Source of the DNA: Bordetella pertussis 18323 | Lineage (GTDB): Bacteria > Pseudomonadota > Gammaproteobacteria > Burkholderiales > Burkholderiaceae_B | Length of the DNA: 64,000 nucleotides | Assembly: GCF_000306945.1 (NCBI RefSeq) | Contig: NC_018518.1 | Span: 248,001-312,000, forward strand | Direction of reading: 5' to 3' | Shown here: positions 58,006 through 63,660 of the stretch, piece after piece | Layout: the number at the start of each line of letters is the position of its first letter | Numbering within the stretch: position 1 is the first letter of the stretch | Notes under the pieces: model-generated | What the model was told of the DNA's origin: nothing | Databases searched by the model: none | What the model saw: only the letters and a program-made list of their open reading frames with translations | Position numbers and translations under genes: made by a program

Positions 58006-58710
58006 ATGTCCACCCAGCCGGCCTCCACCCGCATCGCCCCCAGCATTCTATCCGCCGACTTCGCCCGCCTGGGCGAAGAGGTGCGCAACGTCGTCGCCGC
58101 GGGCGCCGACTGGATTCACTTCGACGTGATGGACAACCATTACGTGCCCAACCTGACCATCGGACCGATGGTCTGTGCCGCGATCCGTCCCCATGTGCAG
58201 GTGCCGATCGACGTGCACCTGATGGTCGAGCCGGTCGACGAAATCGTGCCGCAATTCGCCAAGGCCGGCGCCAACGTCATCACTTTCCATCCGGAAGCCT
58301 CGCGCCACGTCGACCGCACGCTGGCGCTGATCCGCGACCACGGCTGCAAGGCCGGCCTGGTGTTCAACCCGGCCACGCCGCTGCACTACATGGACTATGT
58401 GATGGACAAGCTGGACGTGGTGCTGCTGATGTCGGTGAACCCCGGCTTCGGCGGGCAGGCGTTCATCCCGGCCACGCTGGCCAAGCTGCGCGATGCGCGC
58501 GCCCGCATCGACCGCTGGCGCGCGGCCGGCGGCCAGCCCATCCTGCTGGAGGTGGACGGCGGGGTCAAGGTCGACAACATCGCCGAGATCCGCGCCGCCG
58601 GCGCCGACACCTTCGTGGCGGGCTCGGCCATTTTCGGCAAGCCCGACTACGCCCAGGTCATCGGCCAGCTGCGCGCCGAGATCGCGCGCGGCGAAACCAT
58701 CGCCGTGTGA
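58006..58710 (+). CDS. rpe: Ribulose-phosphate 3-epimerase
   Basis: A 234-residue TIM-barrel epimerase: [60 protein letters not shown] and [12 protein letters not shown], with the metal-binding His and Asp residues in place. It interconverts ribulose 5-phosphate and xylulose 5-phosphate. ATG 58006 is used; ATG 57982 is in frame and possible. It is followed seven bases later by gph, a common pairing in proteobacteria. Confidence 0.95.
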
Positions 58711-58717
58711 GGCCGCC

Positions 58718-59422
58718 ATGCATACCATCAACGCCGTACTGCTCGACCTCGACGGCACCCTGCTCGATTCGGTGCCCGACCTGGCCATCGCCGCCAATGC
58801 CATACGCCGCGACCTGGGCATGGCCCAGTTGCCCGAAGCGCTGGTCGCGACGTTCGTCGGCAAGGGCGTGGACAATCTGGTGCGCCGCGCCCTGGCCGGC
58901 AGCCTGGATGGCGCAGCGCCCGACGAAGCGCTGTTCGCACGCGGACGCCTGTCGTTCTTCAAGCACTACCACGCGGTCAATGGCGCGCACGCCACCGTGT
59001 TCGACGGGGTGAAGGCCGGCCTGGCGGCGATGCGCGAACAGGGCCTGCCGCTGGCGGTGGTCACCAACAAACCGACCGAGTTCACCCTGCCGCTGCTCGA
59101 GCGCACCGGCCTGGCGGGGTTTTTCCGCCTGGTGGTGTGCGGCGACACCTGCGCGCGGCGCAAGCCCGATCCCGACCAGGTGCTGCATGCCTGCGACCGG
59201 CTCGGTGTCGCGCCGGCCCAGGCGGTCACCATCGGCGATTCGGTCAACGACGCCCTGGCCGGCCGCAGGGCCGGCACCGCGGTGCTGGCGGTGCCTTATG
59301 GCTACAACGAAGGAATGGACGTGCGTTCCCTGGATGTCGATGGTATAGTTGACACGCTTGTCGATGCGGCCCACTGGATTTCCCAGCGCAACGCCAAGCC
59401 GCAGCGCACCACCGCGGCCTGA
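58718..59422 (+). CDS. gph: Phosphoglycolate phosphatase
   Basis: A 234-residue HAD-family phosphatase: LLDLDGTLLDSVPDLA (motif I, nucleophile Asp), VVTNKPTEF (motif II) and TIGDSVNDALAGRRAG (motif IV). It removes phosphate from 2-phosphoglycolate arising from DNA repair or oxygenation. It lies between rpe and the trp operon; rpe-gph-trpE order is widespread in proteobacteria. Confidence 0.93.
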   Translation: MHTINAVLLDLDGTLLDSVPDLAIAANAIRRDLGMAQLPEALVATFVGKGVDNLVRRALAGSLDGAAPDEALFARGRLSFFKHYHAVNGAHATVFDGVKAGLAAMREQGLPLAVVTNKPTEFTLPLLERTGLAGFFRLVVCGDTCARRKPDPDQVLHACDRLGVAPAQAVTIGDSVNDALAGRRAGTAVLAVPYGYNEGMDVRSLDVDGIVDTLVDAAHWISQRNAKPQRTTAA

Positions 59423-59471: not shown

Positions 59472-59546
59472 ATGAACGCTCGCCCCTCGAACCAAATGCG
59501 CAACGCCTCGTGGCGTTGGTGGCGTTTGTCTTCCGGGTGGCGATGA
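59472..59546 (+). CDS. trpL: trp operon leader peptide
   Basis: A 24-codon ORF starting MNARPSNQ and ending ASWRWWRLSSGWR before TGA. It has four Trp codons, three of them within four codons, far above the roughly 1% expected. It lies 140 bp upstream of trpE and is followed by a terminator hairpin with a T-run. This is the layout of a ribosome-mediated attenuator: charged tRNA-Trp lets the ribosome finish and the terminator form, while starvation stalls it at the Trp codons. Confidence 0.82.
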   Translation: MNARPSNQMRNASWRWWRLSSGWR

Positions 59547-59614
59547 TTCCCTTCCCGGCCCTGGACGTATCTGTCGCCTAGAGCCGGAGCTGTGAAGTGC
59601 AGCGCCAAGCCCGG
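59533..59614 (+). promoter_or_regulatory. Predicted trp antiterminator pairing
   Basis: CCGGGTGGCG (59533-59542, overlapping the last Trp codon and stop of the leader ORF) can pair with CGCCA and CCCGG at 59603-59614, ten base pairs with a two-base bulge. This uses the 5' arm of the terminator and so excludes it. A further perfect hairpin, CAACGCC/GGCGTTG around TCGT (59501-59518), covers the first Trp codons. Confidence 0.65.
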
Positions 59615-59640
59615 AACCCGTAACTGGACCGGGCTTTTTG
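59607..59640 (+). terminator. trp attenuator (Rho-independent terminator in the leader)
   Basis: An eight-pair stem, AAGCCCGG at 59607-59614 with CCGGGCTT at 59629-59636 and a 14-base loop, followed by TTTTT ending at 59639. It ends 46 bp upstream of the trpE start and after the leader ORF, as required for attenuation. Confidence 0.8.
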
Positions 59641-59685
59641 CTGCATGCCCGGTCCGTACCAGAAAAACGCCGTACGAGACCCGAC

Positions 59686-61206
59686 ATGACTGAACTTGAA
59701 TTCAAAGCGCTGGCCGCCCAAGGCTACAACCGCATTCCCCTGGTCGCGGAAACCTACGCCGACCTCGACACGCCGCTGGCGATCTACCTCAAGCTGGCCC
59801 ACAGCGGCCCGCAAGGCGGCCGCATGAGCTGCCTGATGGAGTCGGTGGTGGGCGGCGAGCGCTTTGGCCGCTACTCGTTCATCGGCCTGCCGGCGCGCAC
59901 CGTCATCCGCGCCAGCGGCTCGACCACCGAAGTGCTGCAGGACGGCCACGTCGCCGAAACCCACGAAGGCGACCCGCTGGCGTTCATCGAGTCGTACCAG
60001 GCCCGCTTCAAGGTGGCGCTGCGCCCCGGCATGCCGCGCTTTTGCGGCGGCCTGGCCGGGTACTTCGGCTACGACACCGTGCGCCACATCGAACAGCGCC
60101 TGGGCCCGGCGGTCAAGCCGTTTCCCGACGGCATGGAAGAAGGCACGCCCGACATCATGCTGCTGCACGTCGACGAACTGGTCATCGTCGACAACCTGGC
60201 CGGCCGCACCTACCTGATGGTGTATGCCGACCCGGCCCAGCCCGAAGCCTACAGCCGCGCCCAGCAGCGCCTGCTGGAGTTGCGCGCGCGGCTGCGCCGC
60301 CCGGTCGAGATCCCGTACAGCTACGCCAGCATGCAGACCGAAGAGCGGCGCGACTTCCAGAAGGCCGACTACCTGGCCGCGGTGGCGCGCGCCAAGGAAT
60401 ACATCGCCGCCGGCGACGTCATGCAGGTGCAGGTCGGCCAGGTCATCGCCAAGCCGTTTCGCGACGCGCCGCTGTCGCTGTACCGCGCGCTGCGTTCGCT
60501 GAACCCCTCGCCCTATATGTATTTCTGGAACTTCGGCGATTTCCAGGTGGTCGGCGCCTCGCCGGAAATCCTGGTGCGCCAGGAGCAGATCGACGACCAG
60601 GGCGAAACCCGCTCGCAGATCACCATCCGGCCGCTGGCCGGCACCCGCAAGCGCGGCGGCACGCCCGAAGAAGACCTGGCGCTGGCCGCCGAACTGCAGG
60701 CCGACCCCAAGGAGCGCGCCGAACACGTGATGCTGATCGACCTGGCGCGCAACGACGTGGGCCGGGTGGCGGAAATCGGCTCGGTGCGCGTCAGCGACAC
60801 CATGGTCATCGAGCGCTACTCGCATGTCATGCACCTGGTCTCCAACGTGGCGGGCAAGCTGCTGCCCGGCATGAGCAGCATGGACGTGCTGCGCGCCGCC
60901 TTCCCGGCCGGCACGCTGACCGGCGCCCCCAAGGTACGGGCCATGGAAATCATCGACGAACTCGAGCCGGTGCGCCGCGGCATCTACGGCGGCGCCGCCG
61001 GCTACCTGAGCTACGGCGGCGAGATGGACGTGGCCATCGCGATCCGCACCGGGGTGATCAAGAACGGCACGCTGTACGTGCAGGCGGCCGCGGGCATCGT
61101 GGCCGACTCCAGCCCCGAAGCCGAATGGGCCGAGACCGAGGCCAAGGCGCGCGCCGTGCTGCGCGCGGCCGAGCAGGTCCAGCACGGCCTGGACGAACCC
61201 ATCTGA
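59686..61206 (+). CDS. trpE: Anthranilate synthase component I
   Basis: A 506-residue chorismate-using enzyme. The N-terminal feedback region has [20 protein letters not shown] (the Trp-binding LLES-type motif, here LMES). The catalytic domain has [26 protein letters not shown] and [20 protein letters not shown]. It makes anthranilate from chorismate with ammonia from TrpG. The start at 59686 ([10 protein letters not shown]) fits the family; the frame is open a little further up. Confidence 0.96.
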
Positions 61207-61261: not shown

Positions 61262-61825
61262 ATGCTATTGATGATCGACAACTACGATTCCTTCACCTAC
61301 AACCTGGTGCAATATTTCGGCGAGCTGGGCGAAGAAGTGCGCGTGGCGCGCAACGACCAGATCACGCTGGACGAAATCGCCGCGATGCGGCCGGACCGCA
61401 TCTGCGTCTCGCCCGGCCCCTGCTCGCCGGCCGAGGCGGGCATCTCGGTGCCGGTGATCCAGGCCTTCGCCGGCAAGCTGCCCATCCTGGGCGTGTGCCT
61501 GGGCCACCAGGCCATCGGCGCGGCCTATGGCGGCGACATCGTGCGGGCGCAGCAGATCATGCACGGCAAGACCATCGCCATCACGCATACGGGCACGGAC
61601 ATCTTCACCGGACTGCCCTCGCCCTGCACCGTCATCCGCTACAACTCGCTGACCATAGACCCGGCCACCCTGCCGGACTGCCTGGAAGTGACCGCGACCG
61701 CGCCCGACGGCGACATCATGGGCGTGCGCCACAAGACCCTGCCGCTGTACGGAGTACAGTTCCATCCCGAGTCCGTGCTGAGCGAGCACGGCCATGCGCT
61801 GATGCGCAACTTCCTGACCCGCTGA
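61262..61825 (+). CDS. trpG: Anthranilate synthase component II (glutamine amidotransferase)
   Basis: A 187-residue class I amidotransferase: [19 protein letters not shown], the nucleophile Cys in [16 protein letters not shown], and the His/Glu of [11 protein letters not shown]. It provides ammonia to TrpE and may also serve aminodeoxychorismate synthase. It lies 55 bp after trpE. Confidence 0.95.
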
Positions 61826-61843
61826 ACCCCTAGGAGCATCGCC

Positions 61844-62875
61844 ATGACCATTGCCGCCACCGAAGCACTGACCCGCTGCATCGAACACCGCGAGATCTTC
61901 CACGACGAAATGCTGCATCTAATGCGCCTGCTGATGCGCGGCGAGCTGTCGCCGCAGATCGCCAGCGCGCTGCTGATGGGACTGCGCGTCAAGAAGGAAA
62001 CCGTGGGCGAGATCACCGCCGCCGCGCAAGTGATGCGCGAATTCGCCACCCCCGTCGTCACGCCCAACCCGCAGGACCTGCTGGACATGTGCGGCACGGG
62101 CGGCGACGGCAGCCATACCTTCAACATCTCCACCACCGCCATGTTCGTGGCCGCCGCGGCCGGCGTGCCGATCGCCAAGCATGGCAACCGCAGCGCATCC
62201 TCGTCGTCGGGCAGCGCCGACGTGCTGGAAGCCCTGGGCGCGAACCTGCAGCTCACGCCCGAGGAAGTGGCCGAGTGCGTGGCCGCCACCGGCATCGGCT
62301 TCATGTTCGCGCCGGCCCACCATGGGGCCATGAAGAACGTTGCCGCGGTGCGCAAGGAGTTGGGGGTGCGCACCATCTTCAACATCCTGGGGCCGCTGAC
62401 CAACCCCGCCGGCGCCGCCAACCAGCTGATGGGCGTGTTCCACCCGGACCTGGTGGGCATCCAGGTGCGCGTGCTGGAGCGCCTGGGCTCGCGCCACGTG
62501 CTGGTGGTGCACGGCAAGGACGGCATGGACGAAGCCTCGCTCGGCGCGGCGACCATGGTGGGCGAACTCAAAGATGGGGTCGTACGCGAGTATGAGATCC
62601 ATCCAGAGGATTACGGGCTATCCATGATGTCCAACCGCGGCATCAAGGTGTCCAATCGCGAGGAGTCTCGCGCACTTGTCATCGAAGCGTTGGATAATGT
62701 CGATGGCGTGGCCCGCGACATCGTGGCCCTGAATGCGGGCCTGGCCATCTACGCCGGCAACAAGGCGGATTCCATCCCCGAAGCGTTGGCCCTGGCATTT
62801 GAAACGATTTCTAACGGCTCGGCCCGTGCCAAGCTGGAAGAATTCTGCGCATATACCCGGAAATTCCAGAAATGA
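61844..62875 (+). CDS. trpD: Anthranilate phosphoribosyltransferase
   Basis: A 343-residue enzyme with the PRPP/Mg loop [38 protein letters not shown] and [13 protein letters not shown]. It transfers a phosphoribosyl group to anthranilate. It is 18 bp after trpG, and its stop overlaps the trpC start (ATGA). Confidence 0.96.
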
Positions 62876-63660
62876 ACGATATTCTTGCGAAAATCCTCGC
62901 CGTCAAGGCCGAGGAAGTGGCTACCGCACGGCAGATGCGCAGCGAGGCCGAATTGCTGCGCGAAGCCCAGGCGCGCCAGGATGTACGCGGCTTCGCCCAG
63001 GCCATCGAGGACAAGATCAGCCAGGGCAAGGCGGGCGTCATCGCGGAAATCAAGAAAGCCTCGCCTTCCAAGGGCGTGCTGCGCGAAAACTTCGACCCGG
63101 CCGAGATCGCGGCGTCCTATGCCATGCATGGCGCGGCCTGCCTGTCGGTGCTGACCGACGTGCAGTTCTTCCAGGGCTCGCACGACAACCTGCGCCGTGC
63201 GCGCGCGGCCTGCTCGCTGCCCGTGCTGCGCAAGGACTTCATCATCGATCCCTACCAGATCATTTCGGCGCGCGCCATGGGCGCGGACTGCGTCCTGCTC
63301 ATCGTCGCGACGCTGGCGCCGGCGCAGTTGCGCGACCTGGAAACCCTGGCCATCGACCTGGGCATGGACGTGCTGGTGGAAGTACACGACGCCAAGGAAC
63401 TGGACGCCGCGCTGGCGCTGCGCACCCCGCTCATCGGCATCAACAACCGCAACCTGCGCACCTTCGAGACCACGCTGCAGACGACGCTGGACCTGCTGCC
63501 GATGATTCCGGCCGGCAAGCGCGTGGTCACCGAAAGCGGCATCCTCAAGCCCGAGGATGTCAGGCTGATGCGCGAGCACGACGTACAGGCCTTCCTCGTC
63601 GGCGAGGCCTTCATGCGCGCCAACGACCCGGGCGTCGAACTGGCGCGGCTGGTGGCCTGA
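62872..63660 (+). CDS. trpC: Indole-3-glycerol phosphate synthase
   Basis: A 262-residue TIM-barrel enzyme: [19 protein letters not shown] (catalytic Lys), [37 protein letters not shown] and VTESGI. It closes the indole ring from the carboxyphenylamino deoxyribulose phosphate intermediate. It is the last gene of the trpEGDC cluster; trpF, trpB and trpA are not here, as is usual for beta-proteobacteria. Confidence 0.96.

What the first reader, a model, noticed from the sequence alone, without database searches (positions are those of the whole stretch)
59472..59640. trp leader peptide and attenuator upstream of trpE
A 24-codon ORF with four Trp codons (W-R-W-W, then W three codons before the stop) is followed by a stem of AAGCCCGG/CCGGGCTT and TTTTT, all within 140 bp of trpE. 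A competing pairing (59533-59542 with 59603-59614) overlaps the last Trp codon and uses the 5' arm of the terminator. These parts fit classical ribosome-mediated attenuation of trpEGDC. The alternative structure is drawn by hand.
Basis: partly seen in the sequence, partly recalled or inferred. Interest (0 to 1): 0.72.

Follow-up and report, generated by a model that had tools for sequence, protein, structure and literature searches.

The report
Conserved tryptophan attenuator upstream of trpE
Just before the tryptophan-making genes lies a short reading frame with clustered tryptophan codons and a predicted transcription-stop hairpin, kept in most family relatives examined, which is predicted to raise copying of these genes when tryptophan runs short: a new case of a well-known kind of switch.

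Summary
The 24-codon ORF (59472-59546), the terminator (59607-59636 plus T-run) and the competing pairing are present. A W-x-W-W leader precedes trpE in 118 of 128 family loci. A script found a terminator in 112 of 119 loci with the motif. The antiterminator's GGG sits 24 nt after the first control Trp codon in 103 of 104 loci, and the helices show paired changes. Two refinements. The fourth Trp codon is probably not a control codon: it lies in the antiterminator strand and is a stop codon in 37 of 106 loci. The antiterminator is a long-range helix closing a junction over two hairpins. Added: an extended -10 element (59341-59349) inside gph, kept in 95 of 106 loci; 8 of its 13 genome copies precede rRNA or tRNA genes. 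Against: on the complete leader, equilibrium folding favours the terminator in most species, so the switch would have to be kinetic. No expression data were available. A new member of a known kind.

The parts
58493..59422 (+). gph, phosphoglycolate phosphatase, the gene upstream; its 3' end holds the predicted leader promoter (true start probably further in, as the family match begins at residue 76)
   Evidence: NCBIfam PRK13222.1-2, 248 bits, cut-off 225
59341..59349 (+). predicted extended -10 element TGGTATAGT of the leader promoter; start site expected near 59356 (inferred)
   Evidence: TGNTATAGT in 95 of 106 loci, 0 in 43,990 nt of the rest of their upstream DNA; in 91 of the 95 inside a frame open for 60 codons upstream; Ile codon ATA in 58 of 63 loci where it could be placed; 13 copies in the genome, 6 before 16S rRNA genes and 2 before tRNA genes
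59472..59546 (+). leader peptide ORF, 24 codons, four Trp
   Evidence: in-frame ATG 13 or 14 codons before the first Trp in 84 of 94 loci counted
59511..59522 (+). control codons Trp-Arg-Trp-Trp
   Evidence: W-x-W-W in 118 of 128 family loci
59502..59517 (+). hairpin P1 inside the coding region (59502-59507 with 59512-59517), likely a pause hairpin (inferred)
   Evidence: MFE -8.9, z -3.0; 2 of 6 pairs change on both sides
59531..59542 (+). antiterminator 5' arm, within codons S-S-G-W-R; includes the fourth Trp codon 59538-59540
   Evidence: GGG at +24 from the first Trp codon in 103 of 104; folds
59555..59587 (+). middle hairpin enclosed by the antiterminator
   Evidence: predicted folds
59589..59603 (+). 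second hairpin enclosed by the antiterminator (missing in some relatives, e.g. L083)
   Evidence: predicted folds; alignment
59604..59616 (+). antiterminator 3' arm, overlapping the terminator 5' arm
59607..59639 (+). intrinsic terminator: arms 59607-59614 and 59629-59636, T-run 59635-59639
   Evidence: found by script in 112 of the 119 motif-bearing family loci
59686..61206 (+). trpE, first gene of the controlled operon
   Evidence: NCBIfam trpE_most TIGR00564, 521.6 bits, cut-off 517.7
61262..63660 (+). trpG (61262-61825), trpD (61844-62875), trpC (62872-63660)

Best explanation
This is a tryptophan-codon leader followed by a predicted terminator and a predicted competing antiterminator in front of trpEGDC, and it very likely controls the operon by ribosome-mediated transcription attenuation. 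Transcription likely starts near 59356 from an extended -10 promoter inside gph (predicted). RNA polymerase makes the leader, P1 may pause it (inferred), and a ribosome begins the leader ORF. With little charged tRNA-Trp the ribosome would stall at W16/W17 (59517-59522); its front edge would lie near 59532 (textbook ribosome footprint, recalled), leaving 59533-59542 free. That strand would pair with 59604-59616 before the terminator's 3' arm is made, closing a junction over two hairpins, so transcription would continue into trpE. With enough tryptophan the ribosome would reach the stop codon and cover the strand, the 59607-59636 terminator would form and transcription would end. The fourth Trp codon is probably there because the RNA strand needs those bases, not as a sensor.
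For: W-x-W-W leader upstream of trpE in 118 of 128 family loci. Terminator in 112 of 119 by script. The antiterminator GGG lies at +24 nt from the first Trp codon in 103 of 104 (searched from +21 to +33), although the gap to the terminator varies. The pairs flanking the anchored GGG/CCC core form in 103, 95, 89, 81 and 102 of 104. Changes on both sides: antiterminator helix 3 of 8 pairs, terminator 2 of 8, P1 2 of 6; the two structures pair in 91-92% of cells, partners slid by 1-3 columns in at most 54%. Own antiterminator arms fit better than exchanged ones: 129 of 160 pairs against 115.7 +/- 3.0, none of 5000 permutations. Before the terminator 3' arm is made, P(antiterminator) averages 0.93 and exceeds 0.5 in 97 of 104 with the first free base at +19 to +21 (96 at +22), and in at most 1 of 104 from +25 on. 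The last drop follows by construction, because the GGG begins at +24.
Against: On the complete leader at equilibrium the antiterminator beats the terminator in only 13 of 104 at +19 and 8 of 104 at +22 (window: 0.71 at +19, 0.05 at +22). So the scheme works only if pairing is kinetically ordered. Before the terminator arm exists the antiterminator also forms in many loci with no ribosome drawn at all (over 0.5 in 92 of 104 from -30, 51 of 104 from -60), so an untranslated leader is not shown to terminate; it fails in 6 of 104 at every stall position tried. With the RNA behind the ribosome included, 7 of 9 species tried form it, L166 and L122 do not. The shuffle control is weaker for the terminator: 111 of 500 shuffles reach its number of pair types. 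Three genus members (L093, L095, L096) have lost the usual stop; with a ribosome at the late stop P(antiterminator) is 0.03, 0.44 and 0.97. Five family loci (L120, L123, L124, L125, L202) keep the leader but no U-tract terminator was found, and downstream complementarity of the strand is not significant there (z -1.3 to 1.6). Four loci (L142-L145) have no leader. No leader ATG has a Shine-Dalgarno-like run (0 of 105), but trpE also mostly lacks one (12 of 122 have it). No expression data.
Confidence: 0.92

Rival explanations
1. The hairpin is only an intergenic terminator for gph and the Trp-rich ORF is a by-product of GC-rich out-of-frame sequence; trpE is controlled elsewhere.
For: Trp-rich short ORF ends occur by chance here, 2 in 64 kb; full-length RNA favours the terminator in most species.
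Against: W-x-W-W kept in 118 of 128 loci, fixed spacing to the antiterminator arm in 103 of 104, changes on both sides in the antiterminator, conserved in-frame ATG.
Confidence: 0.03
2. The attenuator works in cis, and in addition the terminated leader RNA or the leader peptide acts in trans on other genes, as reported for rnTrpL and peTrpL of Sinorhizobium meliloti.
For: The terminated leader would be a free RNA of about 285 nt (inferred); precedent in PMC7298713 (passages seen).
Against: Leader residues between the start and the Trp cluster vary widely; no target was sought. Term searches of the main texts of two B. pertussis small-RNA papers, PMC12235514 and PMC3110155, found no mention of trp or tryptophan.
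Confidence: 0.1
3. A known ligand- or tRNA-binding leader (T-box, riboswitch) rather than translation controls the terminator.
For: A terminator/antiterminator pair would serve these as well.
Against: No Rfam family reaches its cut-off in the window; the best sub-threshold match on this stretch is Trp_leader itself, 15.3 bits; conservation centres on Trp codons in frame.
Confidence: 0.02

Closest known systems
E. coli trpL attenuator (Rfam RF00513 Trp_leader)
   Same: Short leader ORF with adjacent Trp codons, terminator before trpE, competing antiterminator, coding-region hairpin (E. coli details recalled).
   Different: Sub-threshold to the Rfam model (15.3 bits, cut-off 41). The antiterminator 5' arm lies inside the leader ORF and about 70 nt from its partner, enclosing two hairpins, instead of a compact 2:3 hairpin after the stop (E. 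coli side recalled).
Sinorhizobium meliloti trpL / rnTrpL
   Same: Trp-codon leader with a terminator upstream of trpE.
   Different: S. meliloti RNA starts at the leader ATG (PMC7298713, passages); here the predicted start is about 115 nt upstream of the ATG.
Comamonadaceae and related trp leaders (seen here among L007-L079)
   Same: Trp-Arg codons in a short ORF upstream of trpE in the same order of bacteria.
   Different: Different peptide (MFIHH...RGAWPWR), predicted leaderless start in 33 of 44, and no run of four T between leader and trpE in 31 of 44 (44 of 72 loci had the motif by script).

Membership tests
Ribosome-mediated trp attenuator (functional class) | Short ORF with clustered Trp codons upstream of a trp operon | tested here: met
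Ribosome-mediated trp attenuator (functional class) | Intrinsic terminator between leader and first gene | tested here: met
   predicted
Ribosome-mediated trp attenuator (functional class) | Mutually exclusive antiterminator using the terminator 5' arm | tested here: met
   predicted fold and paired changes; it is mostly not the favoured fold of the complete RNA
Ribosome-mediated trp attenuator (functional class) | Stalled ribosome leaves the antiterminator free, terminating ribosome masks it | tested here: inconclusive
   spacing and masking calculations agree for the window but rest on an assumed ribosome footprint; three species with a late stop and two of nine with upstream RNA included do not fit cleanly
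Ribosome-mediated trp attenuator (functional class) | trpE transcription rises on tryptophan limitation and needs leader translation | not testable with these tools
   no expression data
Rfam RF00513 Trp_leader | Score at or above the gathering score of 41 bits | tested here: not met
   15.3 bits at 59511-59642
S. meliloti-type leaderless trpL | Transcript starts at the leader ATG | tested here: inconclusive
   the conserved -10 ends 42-165 nt upstream of the ATG, which speaks against it; start site not mapped

The most novel reading that the evidence does not exclude
A family-wide attenuator design distinct from E. coli trpL: an rRNA-type extended -10 promoter buried in gph drives the leader, and the switch strand is written inside the leader ORF itself, so the same bases (GGGTRGCG) serve as Trp or stop codon, as ribosome-masked switch strand and as the closing helix of a multi-hairpin junction; because the complete RNA prefers the terminator, the decision is made purely by the order of folding.
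Probability: 0.55. Interest if true: 0.5.

Novelty: new member of a known kind. Interest (0 to 1): 0.35.

Why it matters
It places tryptophan attenuation, on comparative evidence, in the Bordetella/Achromobacter family, gives a covariance model that finds it, and points to the bases that seem to matter: the Trp-Arg-Trp-Trp codons, the fixed 24-nt ruler to the switch strand, and a promoter hidden in the neighbouring gene. The natural variants (stop or Trp at codon 23, lost stop, lost U-tract, the Comamonadaceae version) are a ready series for testing how attenuators evolve.

Tried and rejected
Chance ORF: Trp richness alone proved weak evidence (2 ORF ends in the window), so it was not used as proof. 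Full-length equilibrium folding as a test of the switch: it mostly fails and is reported as such. Long-range pairing of Comamonadaceae leaders with the trpE ribosome-binding site: rejected, mean z -0.23, below -2 in 3 of 44. Retained antiterminator pairing in the U-tract-less loci looked convincing by eye but was not significant. Count of TGNTATAGT as evidence: 13 copies in the genome is no excess (18 for the reversed control pattern); only its places are informative. Order-wide covariance search: 155 of 399 genomes pass E 0.01, but nearly all are weak and probably chance under the short calibration; no listed match outside the window's family exceeds 34.1 bits. Of the 27 loci fetched hold trpE and are all in that family, and the other 16 show no TrpE match within their flanks of about 1.5 kb. 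Other copies in the genome: none convincing.

Rows dropped: of 106 non-identical loci with motif and terminator, L203 (terminator mis-called) and L136 (terminator core not found by the script) were left out of the 104-locus counts; these rows were anchored on GGG and CCCG, so the core pairs are matched by construction. The script called no terminator in 7 of 119 motif-bearing loci, of which L137 and L205 do show one by eye. One of the 119, L137, is W-R-W-C, so the strict count is 118. Alignment A1 held 98 of the 105 candidate rows; A2, used for the paired-change counts, held 49, chosen at under 90% similarity after leaving out ten loci of unusual spacing or terminator. Upstream DNA was taken from 122 of the 239 family genomes with a TrpE match, plus 6 named loci of 80.

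Literature: in ten searches no listed title or abstract start describes this attenuator in Bordetella or its family; the library lacks most subscription papers. Older comparative surveys of attenuators could not be read (Vitreschak 2004, seen only as a reference entry; a 2010 survey by Lopatovskaya and colleagues, recalled).

Full report
What is there. Between gph (stop at 59422) and trpE (ATG 59686) lies a 24-codon ORF, 59472-59546, MNARPSNQMRNASWRWWRLSSGWR. It is followed by a hairpin with arms 59607-59614 and 59629-59636 that runs into five T (59635-59639); it folds at -15.4 kcal/mol, z -3.7. Downstream are trpE, trpG, trpD and trpC, and upstream rpe and gph. The genome is a single 4,043,846-base contig. 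The family is called Alcaligenaceae here by inference from named members such as L001, L003 and L006.

Is it more than chance? A Trp-rich ORF alone is not: two ORF ends in the 64-kb window satisfy the same count. Conservation decides. Of the 128, 118 carry a W-x-W-W leader and one (L137) W-R-W-C. The nine others are L003 and L180 (one contig, W-R-G-W), L131 and L176 (altered clusters), L138 (one Trp) and L142-L145 (none; trpE appears to follow gph directly). A script found a terminator in 112 of the 119. The in-frame ATG lies 13 or 14 codons before the first Trp in 84 of 94 loci counted. A covariance model built from 49 leaders scores this place at 110.9 bits and nothing else in the genome above 26.4. 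In 399 genomes of the order, every listed match of 36 bits or more is in the window's own family, and all 11 fetched matches beside trpE are in that family.

The switch. The strand 59531-59538 (UUCCGGGU) pairs with 59609-59616, extended by 59539-59541 with 59604-59606; the second strand overlaps the terminator 5' arm. In 104 loci, anchored on the GGG/CCC core (which is therefore matched by construction), the neighbouring pairs form in 103, 95, 89 and 81 of 104 on one side and 102 on the other. The GGG starts exactly 24 nt after the first control Trp codon in 103 of 104, in a search from +21 to +33, while the distance on to the terminator varies. On 49 diverse sequences the antiterminator helix has 3 of 8 pairs, the terminator 2 of 8 and the coding-region hairpin P1 2 of 6 with changes on both sides. 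P1 plus antiterminator pairs in 91.3% of cells and P1 plus terminator in 92.1%; slid controls reach at most 49.9% and 53.8%. Of the five shuffle measures, the two weakest are reached by 7 of 500 shuffles for the antiterminator structure, and one (number of pair types) by 111 of 500 for the terminator structure. Own arms fit better than permuted arms: 129 of 160 against 115.7 +/- 3.0, none of 5000, on 32 distinct arm combinations. Relatedness between species is not removed by these controls, so they support the pairing without proving it.

Ribosome positions. Taking the textbook footprint (recalled), a ribosome waiting for tRNA-Trp at W16 or W17 leaves bases from about +19 or +22 free. With the RNA ending just before the terminator 3' arm, the antiterminator forms with mean probability 0.93 and exceeds 0.5 in 97 of 104 loci at +19 to +21, and in 96 at +22; from +25 on it is absent in all but at most one. 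The latter is built in, because the GGG starts at +24. The window's predicted structure is a helix closing a junction with two hairpins, 59555-59587 and 59589-59603. RNAalifold also pairs the same GGG with a CCC that in the window is 59554-59556, a possible third partner.

Results against. On the complete leader, equilibrium folding prefers the terminator: the antiterminator wins in only 13 of 104 at +19 and 8 of 104 at +22; in the window it is 0.71 at +19 and 0.05 at +22. The switch must therefore depend on folding order, which was not simulated. Before the terminator arm exists, the antiterminator also forms in 92 of 104 loci with RNA free from -30 and in 51 of 104 from -60, so an untranslated leader is not shown to terminate, and six loci (L005, L155, L186, L190, L196, L200) do not form it at any stall position tried. 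With a masked ribosome and the RNA behind it included, 7 of 9 species tried form it and L166 and L122 do not. L093, L095 and L096 have lost the usual stop codon, and with the ribosome at the late stop P(antiterminator) before the terminator arm is 0.03, 0.44 and 0.97, so the simple scheme does not fit all three.

Codon 23 is TGG in 51, TAG in 31 and another codon in 24 of 106 loci; counting TAA and TGA, it is a stop in 37. The commonest stretches there, GGGTGGCGA, GGGTAGCGG and GGGTGGCGG, keep the RNA letters while the meaning changes, so the bases rather than the amino acid seem to be kept. A ribosome stalled at W23 would cover the antiterminator strand. W23 is therefore probably not a sensor.

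Promoter. In gph, 59341-59349 reads TGGTATAGT, an extended -10 element. TGNTATAGT is found in 95 of 106 loci, with N = G in 52, A in 28 and C in 15, and never in the remaining 43,990 nt of the same upstream sequences. In 91 of the 95 it lies in a frame open for at least 60 codons upstream, and where the script could place the gph codon, Ile is the codon ATA in 58 of 63, behind either Gly or Ala. In this genome the motif occurs 13 times; a reversed control pattern occurs 18 times, so the number is no excess. The places are telling: six copies lie in front of the three 16S rRNA genes (about 420 and 665 nt upstream), one 10 nt before a tRNA-Pro gene, one about 160 nt before a tRNA-Gly gene, one here, and four without an RNA gene found nearby. 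No promoter-like match with a -35 was found by the consensus scan. The start site near 59356 and a roughly 115-nt untranslated stretch before the leader are predictions. No leader ATG has a Shine-Dalgarno-like run (0 of 105), which is also true of most trpE starts in this family (12 of 122 have one).

What is known. Rfam finds no family at its cut-off in the window; the best sub-threshold hit on this stretch is Trp_leader, 15.3 bits against 41. The S. meliloti leader and its trans-acting products (PMC7298713, passages) and the modelling of trp attenuation (PMC1183508, passages) are the nearest held literature that was opened. A genome-wide attenuator survey (PMC2965389, passages) has no occurrence of Bordetella in its main text. 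Ten paper searches listed no title or abstract describing this element, but the library is partial.

Verdict. A trp attenuator of the classical kind, conserved through most of its family as sampled, with its own architecture; a new member of a known kind.

Noticed in passing
44 of the 72 named loci L007-L079 with upstream DNA, 120-250 nt upstream of trpE: Comamonadaceae and relatives carry a different, strongly conserved leader (MFIHH...TGCSDRGAWPWR). An extended -10 (mostly TGCTACACT) sits 6-10 nt before the ATG in 33 of 44 loci, so the mRNA is predicted to be leaderless; 31 of 44 have no run of four T between leader and trpE, so how it would attenuate is unclear.
   Followed up: partly
L120, L123, L124, L125, L202: Sampled members of genera g12 and g43 of the same family keep the W-R-W-W leader, but no U-tract terminator was found before trpE.
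   Followed up: partly
L093, L095, L096: Three members of the window's genus have lost the leader stop codon; the leader reads on and ends 11 codons later, in the region of the middle hairpin.
   Followed up: partly
window 59341-59349 and 12 other places in G000:C1: TGNTATAGT occurs 13 times in the genome: six before 16S rRNA genes, two before tRNA genes, one here; four (in L244, L247, L248, L249) have no RNA gene nearby by Rfam or ARAGORN and remain unassigned.
   Followed up: partly
L142-L145: Genera g13 and g35 have a more distant TrpE (60-66% identity to the window's) that appears to follow gph directly, with no leader.
   Followed up: no
G000:C1:3926831-3927718 (L082): A second chorismate-binding gene, 38% identical to TrpE over residues 189-491; perhaps pabB.
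   Followed up: no
L136 (genome G021, 0.8 Mb): A reduced genome of the family keeps a W-R-W-W leader, while the match to its trpE contains one in-frame TAA.
   Followed up: no
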